From positions 1 to 23,534 of the IMG/VR virus record IMGVR_UViG_3300039018_000195: DNA of 23,534 bases; one strand, given 5' to 3'. The translations under genes were made by a program, and so were the position numbers. The DNA comes from a virus. Positions 1 to 12,545 of the stretch are shown here, piece by piece (positions within the stretch are counted from its first letter, which is position 1; each line of letters begins with the position of its first letter). The notes beneath the pieces are model-generated. The model did no database searches. It had not been told where the DNA came from and saw only the letters and a program-made list of their open reading frames with translations.

Positions 1-408
1 TAATCAAATAGCTTGTCAAAGGCTGTTTTGTGGCTCTCATCAAAGATTATCATGGTCCTACTTGCAAGGAATGTAGCATACTTTTCAGCCCTTCGAGATA
101 GTGTTTCAACCATTGCAACGTGGCATGATAGCGATAAGTCGGGATTTGAATTAGCTTTGATAAATTCGGGTGTTAAACCTACTCTTTCAAAAGCACCTCC
201 AGCTTGCTTCATTAGTTCAATCCTATCCGTTACAACCAACGCCCGACCTCCGCGCTTTATGTGTTCGTTCACCATGTGAGTGAAAAGTACAGTTTTGCCG
301 TCAGCCCGCGCCCGTAGGTGCGCACAAAACAACTTTCGTATGTCCTGTTTTCATCGCATTCCTAAGGGCGCGGATAGCTTCTATTTGGTATGGTCTTAAA
401 TCAATCAC
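1..408 (-). pseudogene. Superfamily 2 DEAD/DEAH-type helicase, 3'-truncated by window edge and frameshifted in Walker A
   Basis: An ATP-dependent superfamily 2 helicase, probably acting in phage replication or recombination with the primase-helicase upstream. The N-terminus reads (M)IDLRPYQIEAIRALRNAMK, a Q-motif-like start, then VVLCAPTGAG, where the frame meets a TGA at 301-303. Reading resumes one frame over as DGKTVLFTHMV, then a motif Ia-like ALVVTDR, a motif Ib-like VAMVETL and the motif II FDESHK before the window edge. Removing seven bases (297-303) restores a canonical APTGAGKTVLF Walker A, so I read this as a 7-bp insertion. The start is GTG at 408, overlapping the stop of the upstream HNH gene as GTGA. 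The family call is firm. Whether the gene is truly broken, or the insertion is a sequencing or assembly error, cannot be decided here. Confidence 0.82.
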
Positions 409-827
409 TTTGATAGTTTTTCTCTCATGTGATGTATGTTCAATATGGTAGTTTTATCGCGTTCGTTATAAATACCATTTGCAAATGCGTGGCGCATATT
501 TTCGGCATTTGTAGCCCACTCCAAGTTTGACACATGGTTATTTAGCTTATTACAGTCTATATGGTTCACCGTGTTTTTATTTAACGGATTATCAATAAAC
601 GATTCTGCTACTATCCTATGCAAAGACTTGGTATGTTTTTTTGACTTTACAGATAAATAAACCCTCAAGTATCCTTTTTTATTTGGCGTAGACTTCAAAA
701 CTGTTTGTGAAAAATTTGCAACCCTTCCATCTTTGTAAATAGTTTCACATTGCTTACGCCTTACTTTTCCAGTATTACTTACTTCATAATACCCTTCAAA
801 ATTTTTAGCATCAATCCAAGTTTCCAT
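405..827 (-). CDS. HNH homing endonuclease with NUMOD4 domain
   Basis: A 140-residue free-standing homing endonuclease that would cut a specific DNA site to spread its own gene. Residues 4-25 (WIDAKNFEGYYEVSNTGKVR) match the NUMOD4 DNA-binding motif. The HNH core follows, with H70 in LHRIVAESF, N88-H89-x-D91 in VNHIDCNKLNN, and the typical SNLEWAT at 100-106. Its last four bases overlap the GTG start of the helicase, and it sits between two replication genes, the usual setting for phage HNH enzymes. It has its own promoter-like sequence directly upstream. The target is unknown. The neighbouring helicase carries a small insertion in its most conserved motif about 100 bp downstream, which is suggestive but not evidence of cutting there. 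Confidence 0.9.
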   Translation of the reverse strand: METWIDAKNFEGYYEVSNTGKVRRKQCETIYKDGRVANFSQTVLKSTPNKKGYLRVYLSVKSKKHTKSLHRIVAESFIDNPLNKNTVNHIDCNKLNNHVSNLEWATNAENMRHAFANGIYNERDKTTILNIHHMREKLSK

Positions 828-3767: not shown

Positions 3768-3974
3768 TCATGGTATAAAGTATTCGTTGCATAGTATCAT
3801 TACGCCTAAGCCGTTCTTTTCGCGCACCAGCCTATCTTTTACGTCAATACCTCCGCGTCTGAATCGGGATATTTCTGTTGGTAAATTCTCATGGCCGTAC
3901 AATCTGAATGCAGAGTAACGGTTCAATGGTTGGCCGCTTTGGAGGTGAGTAAGGATGTCGGAGGATTTTGACAT
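3768..3974 (-). CDS. Small helix-turn-helix protein (HTH_39-like)
   Basis: A 68-residue protein with the pattern of the short phage winged-helix family HTH_39. A first helix (SSDILTHLQSGQPLNRY) leads into SAFRLYGHENLPTEISRFRRGGIDV, where the LPTEISRFRR helix would read DNA and the following residues make a wing. It is the last gene of the modification operon, its ATG overlapping the stop of the radical-SAM-like gene as TAATG, and a terminator follows about 50 bp on. It could regulate the phage operons or assist the modification enzymes; nothing in the sequence chooses between these. The HTH call is fairly secure, the role is not. Confidence 0.7.
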   Translation of the reverse strand: MSKSSDILTHLQSGQPLNRYSAFRLYGHENLPTEISRFRRGGIDVKDRLVREKNGLGVMILCNEYFIP

Positions 3975-4810
3975 TATGCTTTTAATTTGAATAGTTTTAA
4001 CTGTTTAATCGTGCCACGTTTATTTGGGTACTGTTGCACTTTAGGCTTAATGTTTAGCCCGCACATTTCGTGACAAGTTGAACATTTACCAAAATATGTA
4101 CTTGGTTTGAATTTACTAACTAAAGCCTTTTTGCCTAAAAAAGTTGTTTCAGAAACTTTAACAACCCCATCATTAACTAATGCGTTACGCCTATTCAATC
4201 GCAAAACCGTGTCTAGCGTATTTTCGTTTTTGAATAATTTAGATTGAACCTTTGCTAATTCGTGACCCGTTTCGTTTTCTAAATTAAAGTCGGCTGAAAC
4301 GACCCGCAAAACGGACTTGCAATATCGTTTTAGTATTTCGTATTGCGCTAAACTATTTGCAATCAAATGTGGTTTGTCCAATGCAGAAACTGAGGTGTTA
4401 ATACATACGTTTACCGTTGCCATATAGTCTAACTGCGATTGGTTTAAGTTTGTCCAATGCTTTGTAATTATCACAATTTGCTTATTACAATGCTCAATAC
4501 CCTTAATGATTTTGATTGTATGTTCCCAATTTTCTGAAGGGTCTCCACTTGTTCCAATACGTATAAAATCTAACTTAACGCGGTTAATTCCATCTACTAT
4601 TTTGCGCCTATGCTTTTCGTTCACAAAGTCACGGTATACCGTTTTTGAAAAGTCATATCCGTAAAGTTTAGCAGACTTTGCCGCGTAGCAATCACCATAG
4701 CAACCGCCTTTCTCATTTGTCATCCCACTATTGCACCCGATAGAGGTATCTAACGAGTAGATACCTCTTGAGTTTTGCGTAAGTGAAATAGTAGATGAAT
4801 AGCTGCGCAT
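3974..4810 (-). CDS. Radical-SAM-like iron-sulfur protein (phage Gp37/Gp68-DUF5131-like)
   Basis: A 278-residue protein with cysteines laid out like the phage Gp37/Gp68 (DUF5131) radical-SAM-like family: C26, C37 and C41 in GCNSGMTNEKGGCYGDCYAA. This is not the classical CxxxCxxC but matches the family's GC...GCxxCYA style. Alternating strands and helices follow as in a partial TIM barrel (IRIGTSGDPSENW, IVIITKHW, VNVCINTSVSALD, LRVVSADFN). A second cysteine group, C243-x2-C246-x3-C250, near the end may hold another cluster or zinc. It overlaps the GNAT-methyltransferase gene at 4810 and the HTH gene at 3974. I infer a role in a DNA base modification together with the methyltransferase; the substrate is unknown. 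Confidence 0.6.
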   Translation of the reverse strand: MRSYSSTISLTQNSRGIYSLDTSIGCNSGMTNEKGGCYGDCYAAKSAKLYGYDFSKTVYRDFVNEKHRRKIVDGINRVKLDFIRIGTSGDPSENWEHTIKIIKGIEHCNKQIVIITKHWTNLNQSQLDYMATVNVCINTSVSALDKPHLIANSLAQYEILKRYCKSVLRVVSADFNLENETGHELAKVQSKLFKNENTLDTVLRLNRRNALVNDGVVKVSETTFLGKKALVSKFKPSTYFGKCSTCHEMCGLNIKPKVQQYPNKRGTIKQLKLFKLKA

Positions 4811-6201
4811 TACAGGCGGCCTATGTTTTCGTGGCGGTCTTTAATTTTGGTCATATCGCCTTTGTAAAATACAAGTATCTTTTGTTCACGCTTTGGGAAC
4901 TTGCGATAGTGAAGCGTTCTTTTTGCGTGGGCAAGGCGTGTAAACTCACACTCTAAATACACAATTTTGTTGTAAATGTGTAGCCCTTGTTGCTTGAAGA
5001 AAATTTCATGCTCCGCTTCGCAGCCGTAGTACGCCCCGTTTTTATCGCGGCTATCGCCTGTCATTACCACAAAGAAACAATTATCATTTAACGCTTCTAT
5101 TGCGTGTTTATACCCAGCGAAAAGCGTATCTCTAAACTCATCGTAAGTTGGTATCGCATTCAATTCACCAACGGGCGGCTTACCATCATAATCCAAATAA
5201 TCCTCAACTTGGTAATACGGTGGGCAAGTGAAAACCAAATCGTATTTCTGTTTTGGCTTAAACTTTGAACTATCAGACTTAACCCATTTCGTGTTGTAAA
5301 AATCCTTGCAAATGGCATTGTTTGCATCACATTGATTTTGTCGTATTTCGCTCGATGTGTATTCGTAGCCGTGGTCGCCCGTTACAAATCCAAATTGAAC
5401 ACCTCCGCCAAAGGGATTGTAAACCCTTACGCCATCTTTAGGCATGAAGAAACGGAGTATTACTTCGCAAGCAACAGGGTCTAAAACAGAAACGTTACCA
5501 TTAAACGACTTTCCTTTTTTGTCGATTATAGTTCCGTCCTCCGCTACTTCTTGCGTTGCTAAAACTACGTTCGACATTCCATTATCGCCCATCCATGCAC
5601 CCTCGCGGCTTGCGTACTTTGGATTTACAACACCGTTACGTTCACCAGCGGCTTCGATTTTCTCATTCCACTCTTTTTTCATCTTTAACCAATCGCCTTT
5701 TGTGCTGTTCCACACGTTTGTCATTGTGGCGTGGGCTAAGCGTTTCAATCGAACTTGTTTCAGTTCACCGTAAACCATGTATGAATAACCGCTCAAATTC
5801 AAATACTCTTTGAACCCGATTTCTGCAAATACCTTTGGATTTTCTAAGTCGTGTTTTTGGCTCACGGTCATTACCATAGGATAACCAAACGTGTTTTGCT
5901 TGATTATTTCGCCCACCATTTTAGCGTAAATATGTTTGTCCTTTTTGTTCAAATCCATAGCCGATTGAAGCAAACAAAACTCTTTTGCATCGTGGTTAAT
6001 TTGAAACGTAAAGAAACCCGCAAACTCATCATTTATATGCAAAATAACGGCTGAGTGTATTTGCATATTCTTACGGGCGGCTCGATATGCTACCTTGTCC
6101 TCAATAGCTAATTTAGCTACATCATTTTCATAACCCGACCCGATAACGGATTCAACGGTGGTGAAACTTACTTTGTCCTCAAAAAGTTTTGCTTGGTTCA
6201 T
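4810..6201 (-). CDS. GNAT-like domain fused to a DNA amino-methyltransferase
   Basis: A 463-residue two-domain protein. Residues about 10-150 look like a GNAT fold (VILHINDEFAGFFTF, then a helix with HIYAKMVGEII, then NPKVFAEIGFKEY) but without the usual Q/R-x-x-G-x-G/A acetyl-CoA loop. The C-terminal part is an N6-adenine or N4-cytosine methyltransferase: motif I YNPFGGGVQFG (261-271) and motif IV TCPPYY (325-330), with later strands CFFVVMTGD and KIVYLECEF. CPPY replaces the commoner DPPY/NPPY/SPPY. A Mom-type GNAT enzyme modifies adenine in phage Mu, so the fusion suggests a hypermodified base, perhaps to evade restriction. It starts at ATG 6201, about 29 bases after the expected transcription start, and heads the operon with the radical-SAM-like and HTH genes. 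Confidence 0.78.
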   Translation of the reverse strand: MNQAKLFEDKVSFTTVESVIGSGYENDVAKLAIEDKVAYRAARKNMQIHSAVILHINDEFAGFFTFQINHDAKEFCLLQSAMDLNKKDKHIYAKMVGEIIKQNTFGYPMVMTVSQKHDLENPKVFAEIGFKEYLNLSGYSYMVYGELKQVRLKRLAHATMTNVWNSTKGDWLKMKKEWNEKIEAAGERNGVVNPKYASREGAWMGDNGMSNVVLATQEVAEDGTIIDKKGKSFNGNVSVLDPVACEVILRFFMPKDGVRVYNPFGGGVQFGFVTGDHGYEYTSSEIRQNQCDANNAICKDFYNTKWVKSDSSKFKPKQKYDLVFTCPPYYQVEDYLDYDGKPPVGELNAIPTYDEFRDTLFAGYKHAIEALNDNCFFVVMTGDSRDKNGAYYGCEAEHEIFFKQQGLHIYNKIVYLECEFTRLAHAKRTLHYRKFPKREQKILVFYKGDMTKIKDRHENIGRL

Positions 6202-11062: not shown

Positions 11063-11298
11063 TTGGATTCTGGTTTATCAAACATTGTTTCCTTCCATCT
11101 ATTCCATTCGTCCGTAGCATCTGAATCACCCTCATATCCTATTAAGATTAACCCGTGGTCGCCTTTGTAAAGAAATTCGGGCAGCTTATCAGTTACGGTA
11201 AATAAATCCATAATCCTTTCGATTGCATCGTTTTGAGTTATTTCTCGGCTTGCAAGTTCAGCAACTATGTCGTATAATTGGTTTTCTTGGTAGTCCAT
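11059..11298 (-). CDS. Hypothetical acidic protein, 79 aa
   Basis: I start it at ATG 11298 (MDYQENQLYDIVAELASREI), where TAATG overlaps the stop of the M15 peptidase. The longer open frame upstream lies entirely within that gene. The first half is helical and the second strand-rich (YKGDHGLILIGYEGD). It is acidic and without membrane segments. No family is recognised. Confidence 0.62.
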   Translation of the reverse strand: MDYQENQLYDIVAELASREITQNDAIERIMDLFTVTDKLPEFLYKGDHGLILIGYEGDSDATDEWNRWKETMFDKPESK

Positions 11299-11711
11299 TA
11301 TTTCCTTAAAATTTGCAGATGAGGAAAATCGGGAAACTTCGCCCAGTCGCCCCCATATTCCAATTCGACCCCAAAGGTAAGGGCTACGGCTTGCAAGTGT
11401 CGGGCGATGGCTGTTAAATGCGAAATATCCCAACTTGCCTTACCATCTACAAAAGCGTAAATATCGAACGCTTCGCCACTTTGATGTCGGCTTAACTTTT
11501 TGAACCCATCTGCGTTGGTAATCTTTGCACCCGCCTTAGTTCTACCTTGCGCATACATTTCGTTTTGACGGTATGCACTACGCAAGCCACCGTCTAAAGG
11601 TATGCCAAAATCGTATGGGCTGTTGGTAATTGCCGCTTCGATAATCTCGATTAACACGGGTTTAACTCCTTGCAATCGGGCGCGGGATGTCTTTGAAAGT
11701 TTGTATATCAT
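11298..11711 (-). CDS. M15-family peptidase, probable endolysin
   Basis: A 137-residue zinc peptidase of the M15 (VanY/Ply500-like) type, cutting peptide bonds in peptidoglycan. The core is RSAYRQNEMYAQGRT (44-58), the zinc motif SRHQSGEAFD with H76 and D83, and PHLQ with H131 after GGDWAKFPDF. The small size and lack of a signal peptide or binding domain fit a phage endolysin that needs a holin to reach the wall. It heads an operon with small membrane proteins, but the holin-like genes lie on the far side of the tmRNA gene. Its ATG is almost at the expected transcription start, so the message may be leaderless. Confidence 0.85.
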   Translation of the reverse strand: MIYKLSKTSRARLQGVKPVLIEIIEAAITNSPYDFGIPLDGGLRSAYRQNEMYAQGRTKAGAKITNADGFKKLSRHQSGEAFDIYAFVDGKASWDISHLTAIARHLQAVALTFGVELEYGGDWAKFPDFPHLQILRK

Positions 11712-11775: not shown

Positions 11776-11809
11776 AAAAAACCCGCTACTCAATTAAGAA
11801 TAGCGGGTT
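11776..11809 (-). terminator. Rho-independent terminator of the tmRNA gene
   Basis: In minus-strand RNA, AACCCGCTA (11809-11801) pairs with TAGCGGGTT (11788-11780) over 9 bp around a 12-base loop, followed by a U-tract to 11776 and further U after one A. Its upstream arm partly overlaps a helix that closes the tag region of the tmRNA. Confidence 0.88.
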
Positions 11810-12039
11810 AGACTTTGGTTGTCCTCTACCGATTACGCGGCCAGTCTAACTGGTTGTGCAAACATTTGTATTACTTTGCCATTTTCGGCTTGTCAACTCC
11901 CTACGTGCCATTACATCCGTCAAAACCAGTCACCCCCTAATAGTCGGGGCATTTAGCCCCAGTCCAACAACAGACCTTGTGGAGGTGGAGGGAGTCGAAC
12001 CCTCGTCCAAATGTACGCTTTCGCATATCAACGTCAACG
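11807..12039 (-). ncRNA. ssrA: Circularly permuted (two-piece) tmRNA
   Basis: tmRNA rescues stalled ribosomes. Here the 3' half precedes the 5' half. The acceptor piece (about 12039-11980) has the T arm GAGGG-TTCGACT-CCCTC (12004-11988), then CACCTCC (11987-11981) and discriminator A at 11980. About 42 bases with a GGGGC/GCCCC hairpin (11946-11960) intervene. The coding piece then begins GGGGGTG (11937-11931), followed by the tmRNA D-loop sequence ACTGGTTTTGACGG. The two ends form a 7-bp acceptor stem whose third pair is G-U, the alanine identity element. ATGTA near the 5' end pairs with TACAT before the T arm, as helix P2. A tag frame ends LAA-stop. An 8-bp helix (11850-11843 with 11814-11807) resembles P5. 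CCA is not encoded. Exact processed ends are inferred. Confidence 0.85.
11833..11868 (-). other. tmRNA tag reading frame (QMFAQPVRLAA-stop)
   Basis: The frame ends CTG GCC GCG TAA, giving the Leu-Ala-Ala tail that proteases recognise. The resume codon is placed at CAA 11868 because the five bases before it (TAATA) fit the UAnUn pattern preceding resume codons, and this phase agrees with the LAA end. CAA rather than an Ala or Gly codon would be unusual; GCA at 11859 is a less likely alternative start. Confidence 0.6.
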
Positions 12040-12042
12040 GTG

Positions 12043-12050
12043 CAAATGTA
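12043..12050 (-). promoter_or_regulatory. -7 box of the tmRNA promoter
   Basis: Minus-strand TACATTTG is an exact TAnnTTTG match and would start transcription near 12039, giving an acceptor piece of about 60 bases, close to those of known two-piece tmRNAs. A second TACATTTG lies inside the acceptor piece but is part of the P2 strand. A 5-bp-arm inverted repeat (GTTCA-N7-TGAAC, 12075-12091) lies upstream. Confidence 0.55.
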
Positions 12051-12108: not shown

Positions 12109-12222
12109 CTAACGCCCCTGCCCTCTGTACGCCTTAAAACCTTTCGCCCGATACTTTCTATGCCTGCGGAGTTTGCGCTTAACACGGGCCTTAAATTGCC
12201 CCCCTGTGATGTTCTTAGCCAT
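12109..12222 (-). CDS. Small, highly basic protein, 37 aa
   Basis: Reads MAKNITGGQFKARVKRKLRR and ends FKAYRGQGR, with more than a third Lys or Arg. I start it at ATG 12222, where TAATG overlaps the stop of the upstream gene; the longer open frame is only the shadow of that gene. Such a charged peptide could bind nucleic acid or membrane. It is the last protein gene before the tmRNA. No family is recognised. Confidence 0.6.
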   Translation of the reverse strand: MAKNITGGQFKARVKRKLRRHRKYRAKGFKAYRGQGR

Positions 12223-12545
12223 TAGTCTTTCTTTGGTTTTGGAGGTATGTTTGTGAGTGAGCGAATACCACGGTCTAGTTCGTCTATTCGGTGCATAGCT
12301 TCGCGGTGCTGTTGGAAACATAACTCCTCGGCTTTTTTAGAACGGTCTAATTCTAATCGAATATCAGCAAGATCATCTTTGTTTATCCTGTGAATTTCTT
12401 GGTATTCGTTAATAAGCCCTTTGACCTCCTCTAATTGTTGGTTCTTGCCTAATCGAATCCCACCAAATACACCCCCTGCAAGTCCTCCGATTGCTGTTAA
12501 AATTGCGCCTATTCCTTCCGCTTCCATTGTGCTATGTGTTGCCAT
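12222..12545 (-). CDS. Membrane-anchored coiled-coil protein, 107 aa (lysis-related candidate)
   Basis: Starting at ATG 12545 (MATHSTMEAEGIG; ATG 12527 is also possible), the protein has a glycine-rich hydrophobic segment GAILTAIGGLAGGVFGGIRLG, one membrane span or signal anchor, followed by a long charged coiled coil (EEVKGLINEYQEIHRINKDD to MHRIDELDRGIRSL) and a proline/lysine tail. This shape, next to a holin-like gene, is that of an inner-membrane spanin or similar lysis accessory protein. The open frame upstream of 12545 overlaps the holin-like gene and is not used. Function is inferred from topology and place. Confidence 0.6.
   Translation of the reverse strand: MATHSTMEAEGIGAILTAIGGLAGGVFGGIRLGKNQQLEEVKGLINEYQEIHRINKDDLADIRLELDRSKKAEELCFQQHREAMHRIDELDRGIRSLTNIPPKPKKD

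What the first reader, a model, noticed from the sequence alone, without database searches (positions are those of the whole stretch)
11776..12050. A circularly permuted, two-piece tmRNA gene in a Bacteroidetes-type phage
The 3' half (T arm, CACCTCC, discriminator A) lies upstream of the 5' half (GGGGGTG-ACTGGTTTTGACGG), separated by about 42 bases with a hairpin. The ends form a 7-bp acceptor stem with a G-U third pair, the alanine identity element. A tag frame ends LAA-stop and the gene has its own promoter and terminator. Known permuted tmRNAs come from alphaproteobacteria, betaproteobacteria and cyanobacteria; I know of none described for this group of phages, and Bacteroidetes hosts normally carry one-piece tmRNA. 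A phage copy could serve a phage-specific purpose such as tagging host or phage proteins.
Basis: partly seen in the sequence, partly recalled or inferred. Interest (0 to 1): 0.92.

Follow-up and report, generated by a model that had tools for sequence, protein, structure and literature searches.

The report
Two-piece tmRNA gene in Bacteroidota phage
A virus of Bacteroidota bacteria carries its own ribosome-rescue RNA gene with the two halves in swapped order and a tag-peptide code unlike that of the bacterial copies examined; similar genes sit in other Bacteroidota phages and prophages, while nearly all the bacteria sampled use a one-piece version.

Summary
The minus strand (12050-11780) holds a complete circularly permuted tmRNA gene: TAnnTTTG promoter box, T arm and 3' acceptor strand, 42-nt spacer with hairpin, 5' acceptor strand with G3-U70, tag frame, terminator. 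Rfam tmRNA_permuted scores 55.3 bits (cut-off 47). ARAGORN calls the permuted form but the wrong tag; the frame shared with relatives is GKVIQMFAQPVRLAA.

It belongs to a family found in IMG/VR contigs, Maribacter phage Panino, Chryseobacterium phage MA9V-3, crAss-like phages and two Bacteroidota prophages. Across 24 members the acceptor stem pairs in every cell, with compensatory changes, and many share a tag of the form G[K/N]VIxM...R. Of 395 Bacteroidota genomes, two had the permuted form, both in prophages of genomes that also carry a one-piece tmRNA; sampled one-piece tags are GENNYALAA-like.

Two-piece phage tmRNAs are known, and several of these genes are deposited simply as "tmRNA". 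So the gene is a new member of a known RNA family; what I did not find reported is a Bacteroidota-phage lineage with a conserved tag. Best mechanism: a functional extra tmRNA using host SmpB and adding a phage-specific tag. Processing, charging, tagging and independent origin are inferred.

The parts
12043..12050 (-). Bacteroidota-type -7 promoter box TACATTTG (TAnnTTTG)
   Evidence: Sequence; TAnnTTTG lies upstream in 11 of 24 family members, 1.34 expected from shuffles. The consensus itself is from my own knowledge
12009..12028 (-). P2 helix, 3' strand (approximate), start of the acceptor-side piece
   Evidence: Duplex prediction; over 24 members own-partner mean -7.18 kcal/mol against -4.76 with swapped partners, 0 of 20000 permutations as low
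11988..12008 (-). T arm: GGAC, stem GAGGG/CCCTC, loop TTCGACT
   Evidence: Sequence; RF04321 match; family alignment
11981..11987 (-). Acceptor stem 3' strand CACCTCC
   Evidence: P1 pairs in 168 of 168 cells over 24 members, best of 5000 shuffles 161; compensatory changes at pairs 5-7
11980..11980 (-). Discriminator A; CCA not encoded (next bases CAAG)
   Evidence: Sequence
11938..11979 (-). Intervening sequence of 42 nt, presumably removed, with hairpin at 11960-11946
   Evidence: Sequence; fold
11931..11937 (-). Acceptor stem 5' strand GGGGGTG, with G3-U70
   Evidence: Sequence; G3-U70 in 24 of 24 members
11919..11930 (-). D-loop-like segment ACTGGTTTTGAC
   Evidence: RF04321 match; shared by the family
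11899..11918 (-). P2 helix, 5' strand (approximate)
11833..11880 (-). Tag frame GKVIQMFAQPVRLAA-stop; resume codon GGC 11880-11878, TAA 11835-11833
   Evidence: Alignment with tags of relatives, e.g. prophage L245 GKVIQMNNAPVRLAA and L235 GKTIQMFDYEAKVAA
11780..11809 (-). Intrinsic terminator, 12-bp stem, T-rich tail

Best explanation
A functional, circularly permuted (two-piece) tmRNA gene of a Bacteroidota phage, carried in addition to the host's own one-piece tmRNA. Shown from sequence: permuted order, acceptor stem with the alanine identity pair, T arm, P2, tag frame and terminator, conserved in related phages. Inferred: one precursor is transcribed from the TAnnTTTG promoter; RNase P cuts at 11938/11937, the 3' side is trimmed to the discriminator A and a host enzyme adds CCA, giving two pieces held together by P1 and P2; alanyl-tRNA synthetase charges it; host SmpB (none found in this contig) brings it to ribosomes stalled during infection; translation resumes at GGC and adds (A)GKVIQMFAQPVRLAA, ending in a protease signal of the LAA type. 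The tag, unlike the sampled host tags but shared among phages, suggests selection for phage-specific tagging or for keeping ribosome rescue going while mRNA is being degraded.
For: RF04321 55.3 bits over the whole model. Members gathered with free letters (N) at the fifth acceptor pair still pair there: GC 14, CG 5, AT 4, TA 1, and pairs 6-7 switch together in two crAss phages; 168 of 168 P1 cells paired. P2 prefers its own partner. Similar tags in independent phages and prophages, with third codon positions varying most: 394 differences against 252 and 120 at positions 1 and 2; share test p 0.028. Promoter box enriched. One of 84,980 genomes matched the strict permuted pattern: Sunxiuqinia indica, in a region with RecT, antirepressor and integrase; the same genome has a one-piece tmRNA with tag GENNYALAA. 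G235: permuted copy in a region with phage DNA polymerase, helicase and integrase, plus a one-piece tmRNA. Permuted form in 2 of 395 Bacteroidota genomes; one-piece model over cut-off in 141 of 148.
Against: No expression, processing or tagging data. The gene is absent at this position in the relatives compared, so it is dispensable for that phage group. The third-position test is modest, pools related sequences, and the tag group was chosen by resemblance. The fragment is incomplete, so a phage SmpB cannot be excluded.
Confidence: 0.85

Rival explanations
1. A permuted tmRNA captured by phages from alphaproteobacteria, betaproteobacteria or cyanobacteria, rather than a separate permutation in Bacteroidota phages. 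(This concerns origin and is compatible with the same function.)
For: Same gene order, and recognised by a model built from those three lineages (PMC11915505).
Against: Most family members read TTTGAC where most permuted phage genes with ANDxxALAA-type tags read TTTCGAC, and two Bacteroidota one-piece genes (L236, L276) also read TTTTGAC and have T before GGAC. The tags differ from the ANDxxALAA type. These are few characters and no tree was made.
Confidence: 0.35
2. A decoy or inhibitor of host trans-translation: it competes for SmpB or alanyl-tRNA synthetase, like the tag-less phage DS6A form reported to inhibit endogenous tmRNA.
For: Precedent described in PMC11915505.
Against: The tag frame, resume region and stop are kept across members and look conserved at the peptide level.
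Confidence: 0.07
3. An attachment-site remnant or decayed pseudogene from integration into a host tmRNA gene.
For: tmRNA genes are common integration sites (PMC11590407 raises this for Panino).
Against: Both halves are complete and permuted, with promoter and terminator. The S. indica prophage T arm and acceptor differ from those of the host gene, so it is not a copied 3' end of that gene.
Confidence: 0.03
4. Assembly artefact or chance arrangement.
For: Single metagenomic contig, linear fragment.
Against: The same order recurs in many independent contigs, in isolate phages and in bacterial genomes.
Confidence: 0.01

Closest known systems
[quoted passage not shown]
   Same: Gene order, T arm, acceptor stem, D-loop-like segment, tag frame; scores over the cut-off
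   Different: Found in Bacteroidota phages; the tag and P2 sequences differ from the ANDxxALAA-type genes seen here; RF01849-51 did not appear among the matches
Two-piece tmRNAs of marine phages: Melnitz, Pelagibacter phage Mosig (PMC9004378)
   Same: Permuted tmRNA in a phage genome
   Different: Described as close to alphaproteobacterial ssrA, with a glutamine riboswitch; hosts are Proteobacteria
tmRNAs annotated in crAss-like phages, Chryseobacterium phage MA9V-3 and Maribacter phage Panino
   Same: Permuted by ARAGORN and RF04321; phages of Bacteroidota; Panino tag GKVMNVSFAPTVRQFA resembles the window's
   Different: Records say only tmRNA; crAss tags are GN..V.DYT type; spacers are mostly longer than 42 nt
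Bacteroidota one-piece tmRNA (RF00023)
   Same: Same tRNA-like domain; TTTTGAC in two of them
   Different: Unpermuted, about 350-400 nt, tags of 9-10 residues such as GENNYALAA

Membership tests
Permuted tmRNA (RF04321) | Covariance-model score over the curated cut-off | tested here: met
   55.3 bits, cut-off 47
Permuted tmRNA (RF04321) | 3' half encoded upstream of the 5' half with a spacer | tested here: met
   11980 before 11937 on the minus strand, 42-nt spacer
Permuted tmRNA (RF04321) | Seven-pair acceptor stem with G3-U70 | tested here: met
   Sequence; 24 of 24 members
Permuted tmRNA (RF04321) | T arm with TTCGANN loop; D-loop-like segment without anticodon | tested here: met
Permuted tmRNA (RF04321) | P2 helix joining the two pieces | tested here: met
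   Family-level permutation test; weak for the window alone: 657 of 5000 shuffles as good
Permuted tmRNA (RF04321) | Tag reading frame with small hydrophobic end | tested here: met
   GKVIQMFAQPVRLAA-stop
Permuted tmRNA (RF04321) | Processing into two pieces with CCA on the acceptor piece | not testable with these tools
   Needs RNA sequencing
Permuted tmRNA (RF04321) | Works with SmpB and tags proteins | not testable with these tools
   No SmpB in this fragment; host SmpB assumed
Standard one-piece tmRNA (RF00023) | Single contiguous match over the cut-off | tested here: not met
   Two separate sub-threshold matches in swapped order, 32.4 and 17 bits
Alpha, beta or cyanobacterial permuted lineage | Nests in one of the three lineages | tested here: inconclusive
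   Diagnostic letters only, no tree

The most novel reading that the evidence does not exclude
A further lineage of circularly permuted tmRNA arose separately in phages of Bacteroidota and has spread among unrelated phages with a conserved tag of its own, so that infected cells carry a second, phage-specific protein-tagging code beside the host's one-piece tmRNA.
Probability: 0.45. Interest if true: 0.72.

Novelty: new variant of a known kind. Interest (0 to 1): 0.52.

Why it matters
Why phages carry tmRNA is open. Here the phage copies differ from the host's in both gene order and tag, and one tag motif recurs in unrelated phages. That makes the purpose testable: the phage tag can be told apart from the host tag by mass spectrometry. 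Isolates (Maribacter phage Panino, Chryseobacterium phage MA9V-3) and a prophage in Sunxiuqinia indica offer laboratory systems. It would also add a case of tmRNA permutation outside the three main bacterial clades.

Tried and rejected
ARAGORN's tag was rejected because it does not match the relatives. A genome scan with the capsid profile found no prophage of this phage itself, so its host is inferred from promoter type and from weak primase and portal similarity to flavobacterial phages. Close relatives of the phage lack the gene, so conservation had to be sought in unrelated phages. The first regular expression for the acceptor stem misregistered four sequences (157 of 168 cells); one search widened it and, where two registers were possible, took the better-pairing one, in the shuffles as well. 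Searches for a paper describing permuted tmRNA in Bacteroidota phages found none, but the library lacks most subscription journals and supplementary tables were not available, including the phage list of PMC11915505. Attachment-site and artefact readings were rejected as set out among the rivals.

Full report
What is there. The window is a complete IMG/VR record of 23,534 bases, a linear fragment. Its main genes run on the minus strand and include a portal protein, an Erf-like annealing protein, a primase, a weak tape-measure match and an M15-type endolysin. Between a small gene (12109-12321) and the endolysin gene (11298-11711) lies a permuted tmRNA gene. Order on the minus strand: promoter box TACATTTG (12050-12043), P2 3' strand, T arm (12008-11988), acceptor 3' strand CACCTCC (11987-11981), discriminator A (11980), 42-nt spacer with a hairpin, acceptor 5' strand GGGGGTG (11937-11931), ACTGGTTTTGAC (11930-11919), P2 5' strand, tag frame (11880-11833), terminator (11809-11780).

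More than chance. RF04321 tmRNA_permuted matches end to end with 55.3 bits, cut-off 47, E 1.7e-8. The one-piece model RF00023 finds the two halves separately, in swapped order and below its cut-off. Folding is better than in shuffles, z -2.86. ARAGORN calls tmRNA* but gives a tag that does not agree with relatives.

A family of relatives. An exact T-arm pattern and a permuted pattern with free letters (N) at variable positions were scanned over viral contigs. Many loci are permuted. One group shares the window's kind of tag: window GKVIQMFAQPVRLAA; L122 GKVVKMFSPSLRAVA; L169 GKVINMFGQPQLRAVA; L201 GKTFEMFHAPLRAVA; L160 GKVIQMNEPAKLAA; L207 GKVINLFSAEQVRLVA; L088 AKVITLGQPLRMAA; L084 GNVIEMYPQLRATA. 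Maribacter phage Panino has GKVMNVSFAPTVRQFA and Chryseobacterium phage MA9V-3 GNVIDINKYVAKLEVAA. crAss-like phages are permuted too, with tags of the GN..V.DYT kind.

Tests on 24 members. The acceptor stem pairs in 168 of 168 cells; the best of 5000 partner shuffles reached 161. Pair 5 occurs as GC 14, CG 5, AT 4 and TA 1; pairs 6 and 7 switch together in two crAss phages; G3-U70 is present in all 24. The scan patterns fixed much of the T arm and of pairs 1-4 and 6-7, so for pattern-found members the free evidence lies at pair 5; the crAss phages and MA9V-3 were found by plain similarity instead. P2 strands fit their own partner better than swapped ones: mean -7.18 against -4.76 kcal/mol, 0 of 20000 permutations as low; for the window alone P2 is not significant (657 of 5000 shuffles as good). 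Third codon positions vary most in the first six tag codons of 16 tags (252, 120 and 394 differences at positions 1, 2 and 3; share test p 0.028); this is modest, because sequences are related and the group was chosen by tag. TAnnTTTG boxes occur in 11 of 24, with 1.34 expected; several of the others have a tRNA just upstream.

Hosts. The strict permuted pattern hit one of 84,980 bacterial and archaeal genomes, Sunxiuqinia indica. Its copy (tag GKTIQMFDYEAKVAA) lies in a region with RecT, antirepressor and phage integrase, and the same genome has a one-piece tmRNA with tag GENNYALAA. RF04321 over 395 Bacteroidota genomes hit two: this one and G235, whose copy has tag GKVIQMNNAPVRLAA and lies in a region with phage DNA polymerase, helicase and integrase; G235 also has a one-piece gene. 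The search over many genomes used stricter filters, so weak cases may be missed. RF00023 passes its cut-off in 141 of 148 Bacteroidota genomes. The host tags printed, from the best-scoring loci plus G235 and S. indica, are 9-10 residues, such as GEYNYALAA and DNNYSYRLAA.

The gene in its phage group. Related phages with portal identity of 81-94% that cover this place do not have the tmRNA there; in two of them checked by Pfam the next gene is a calcineurin-like phosphoesterase (L010) or an RNase H-like exonuclease (L012). So the tmRNA looks like exchangeable cargo.

How it most likely works. Processing by RNase P and 3' trimming, CCA addition, alanine charging through G3-U70, delivery by host SmpB, resumption at GGC and addition of the 15-residue tag after alanine follow from what is known of two-piece tmRNA; none of these steps was tested here. 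No SmpB was found in this fragment.

Known and new. Permuted tmRNA is a known RNA family, and two-piece phage tmRNAs are known: 53 of 133 unique phage tmRNAs in PMC9004378, 50 of them from marine or aquatic phages. PMC11915505 holds 79 phage tmRNAs and speaks of three main bacterial clades with the permuted form; its supplementary list could not be read. The Panino paper reports a tmRNA, and the passages found do not give its form. I found no paper that describes permuted tmRNA as a feature of Bacteroidota phages with a shared tag, in a library that lacks most subscription journals. A separate origin of the permutation is possible but not shown: it rests on a few shared letters.

Noticed in passing
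L008 386-554 and L007 231-332: RAGATH-9 and RAGATH-20 RNAs lie upstream of the permuted tmRNA in crAss-like phages cr125_1 and cr60_1.
   Followed up: no
L290 (Alcaligenes phage vB_Af_QDWS595), L289 (crAssphage cr53_1), L005 (Cellulophaga phage phi40:1): tmRNA genes with no listed annotation: permuted in the first two, one-piece in the third.
   Followed up: partly
L010 8311-9333, L012 14497-15315: The place of the tmRNA in related phages is taken by other genes: calcineurin-like phosphoesterase or RNase H-like exonuclease.
   Followed up: partly
window 3974-6201: A 278-aa protein with CYGDCYA and no Pfam or PHROG match, next to an ORF with a PHROG DNA methyltransferase match; possible DNA modification pair.
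   Followed up: no
L092, L136, L204, L135: A second group of permuted phage tmRNAs, with tags such as GEHVEMAMAA and GEQVELAMAA and spacers containing a repeated A+T-rich unit.
   Followed up: no
window 405-827: NUMOD4-HNH homing-endonuclease-like gene.
   Followed up: no
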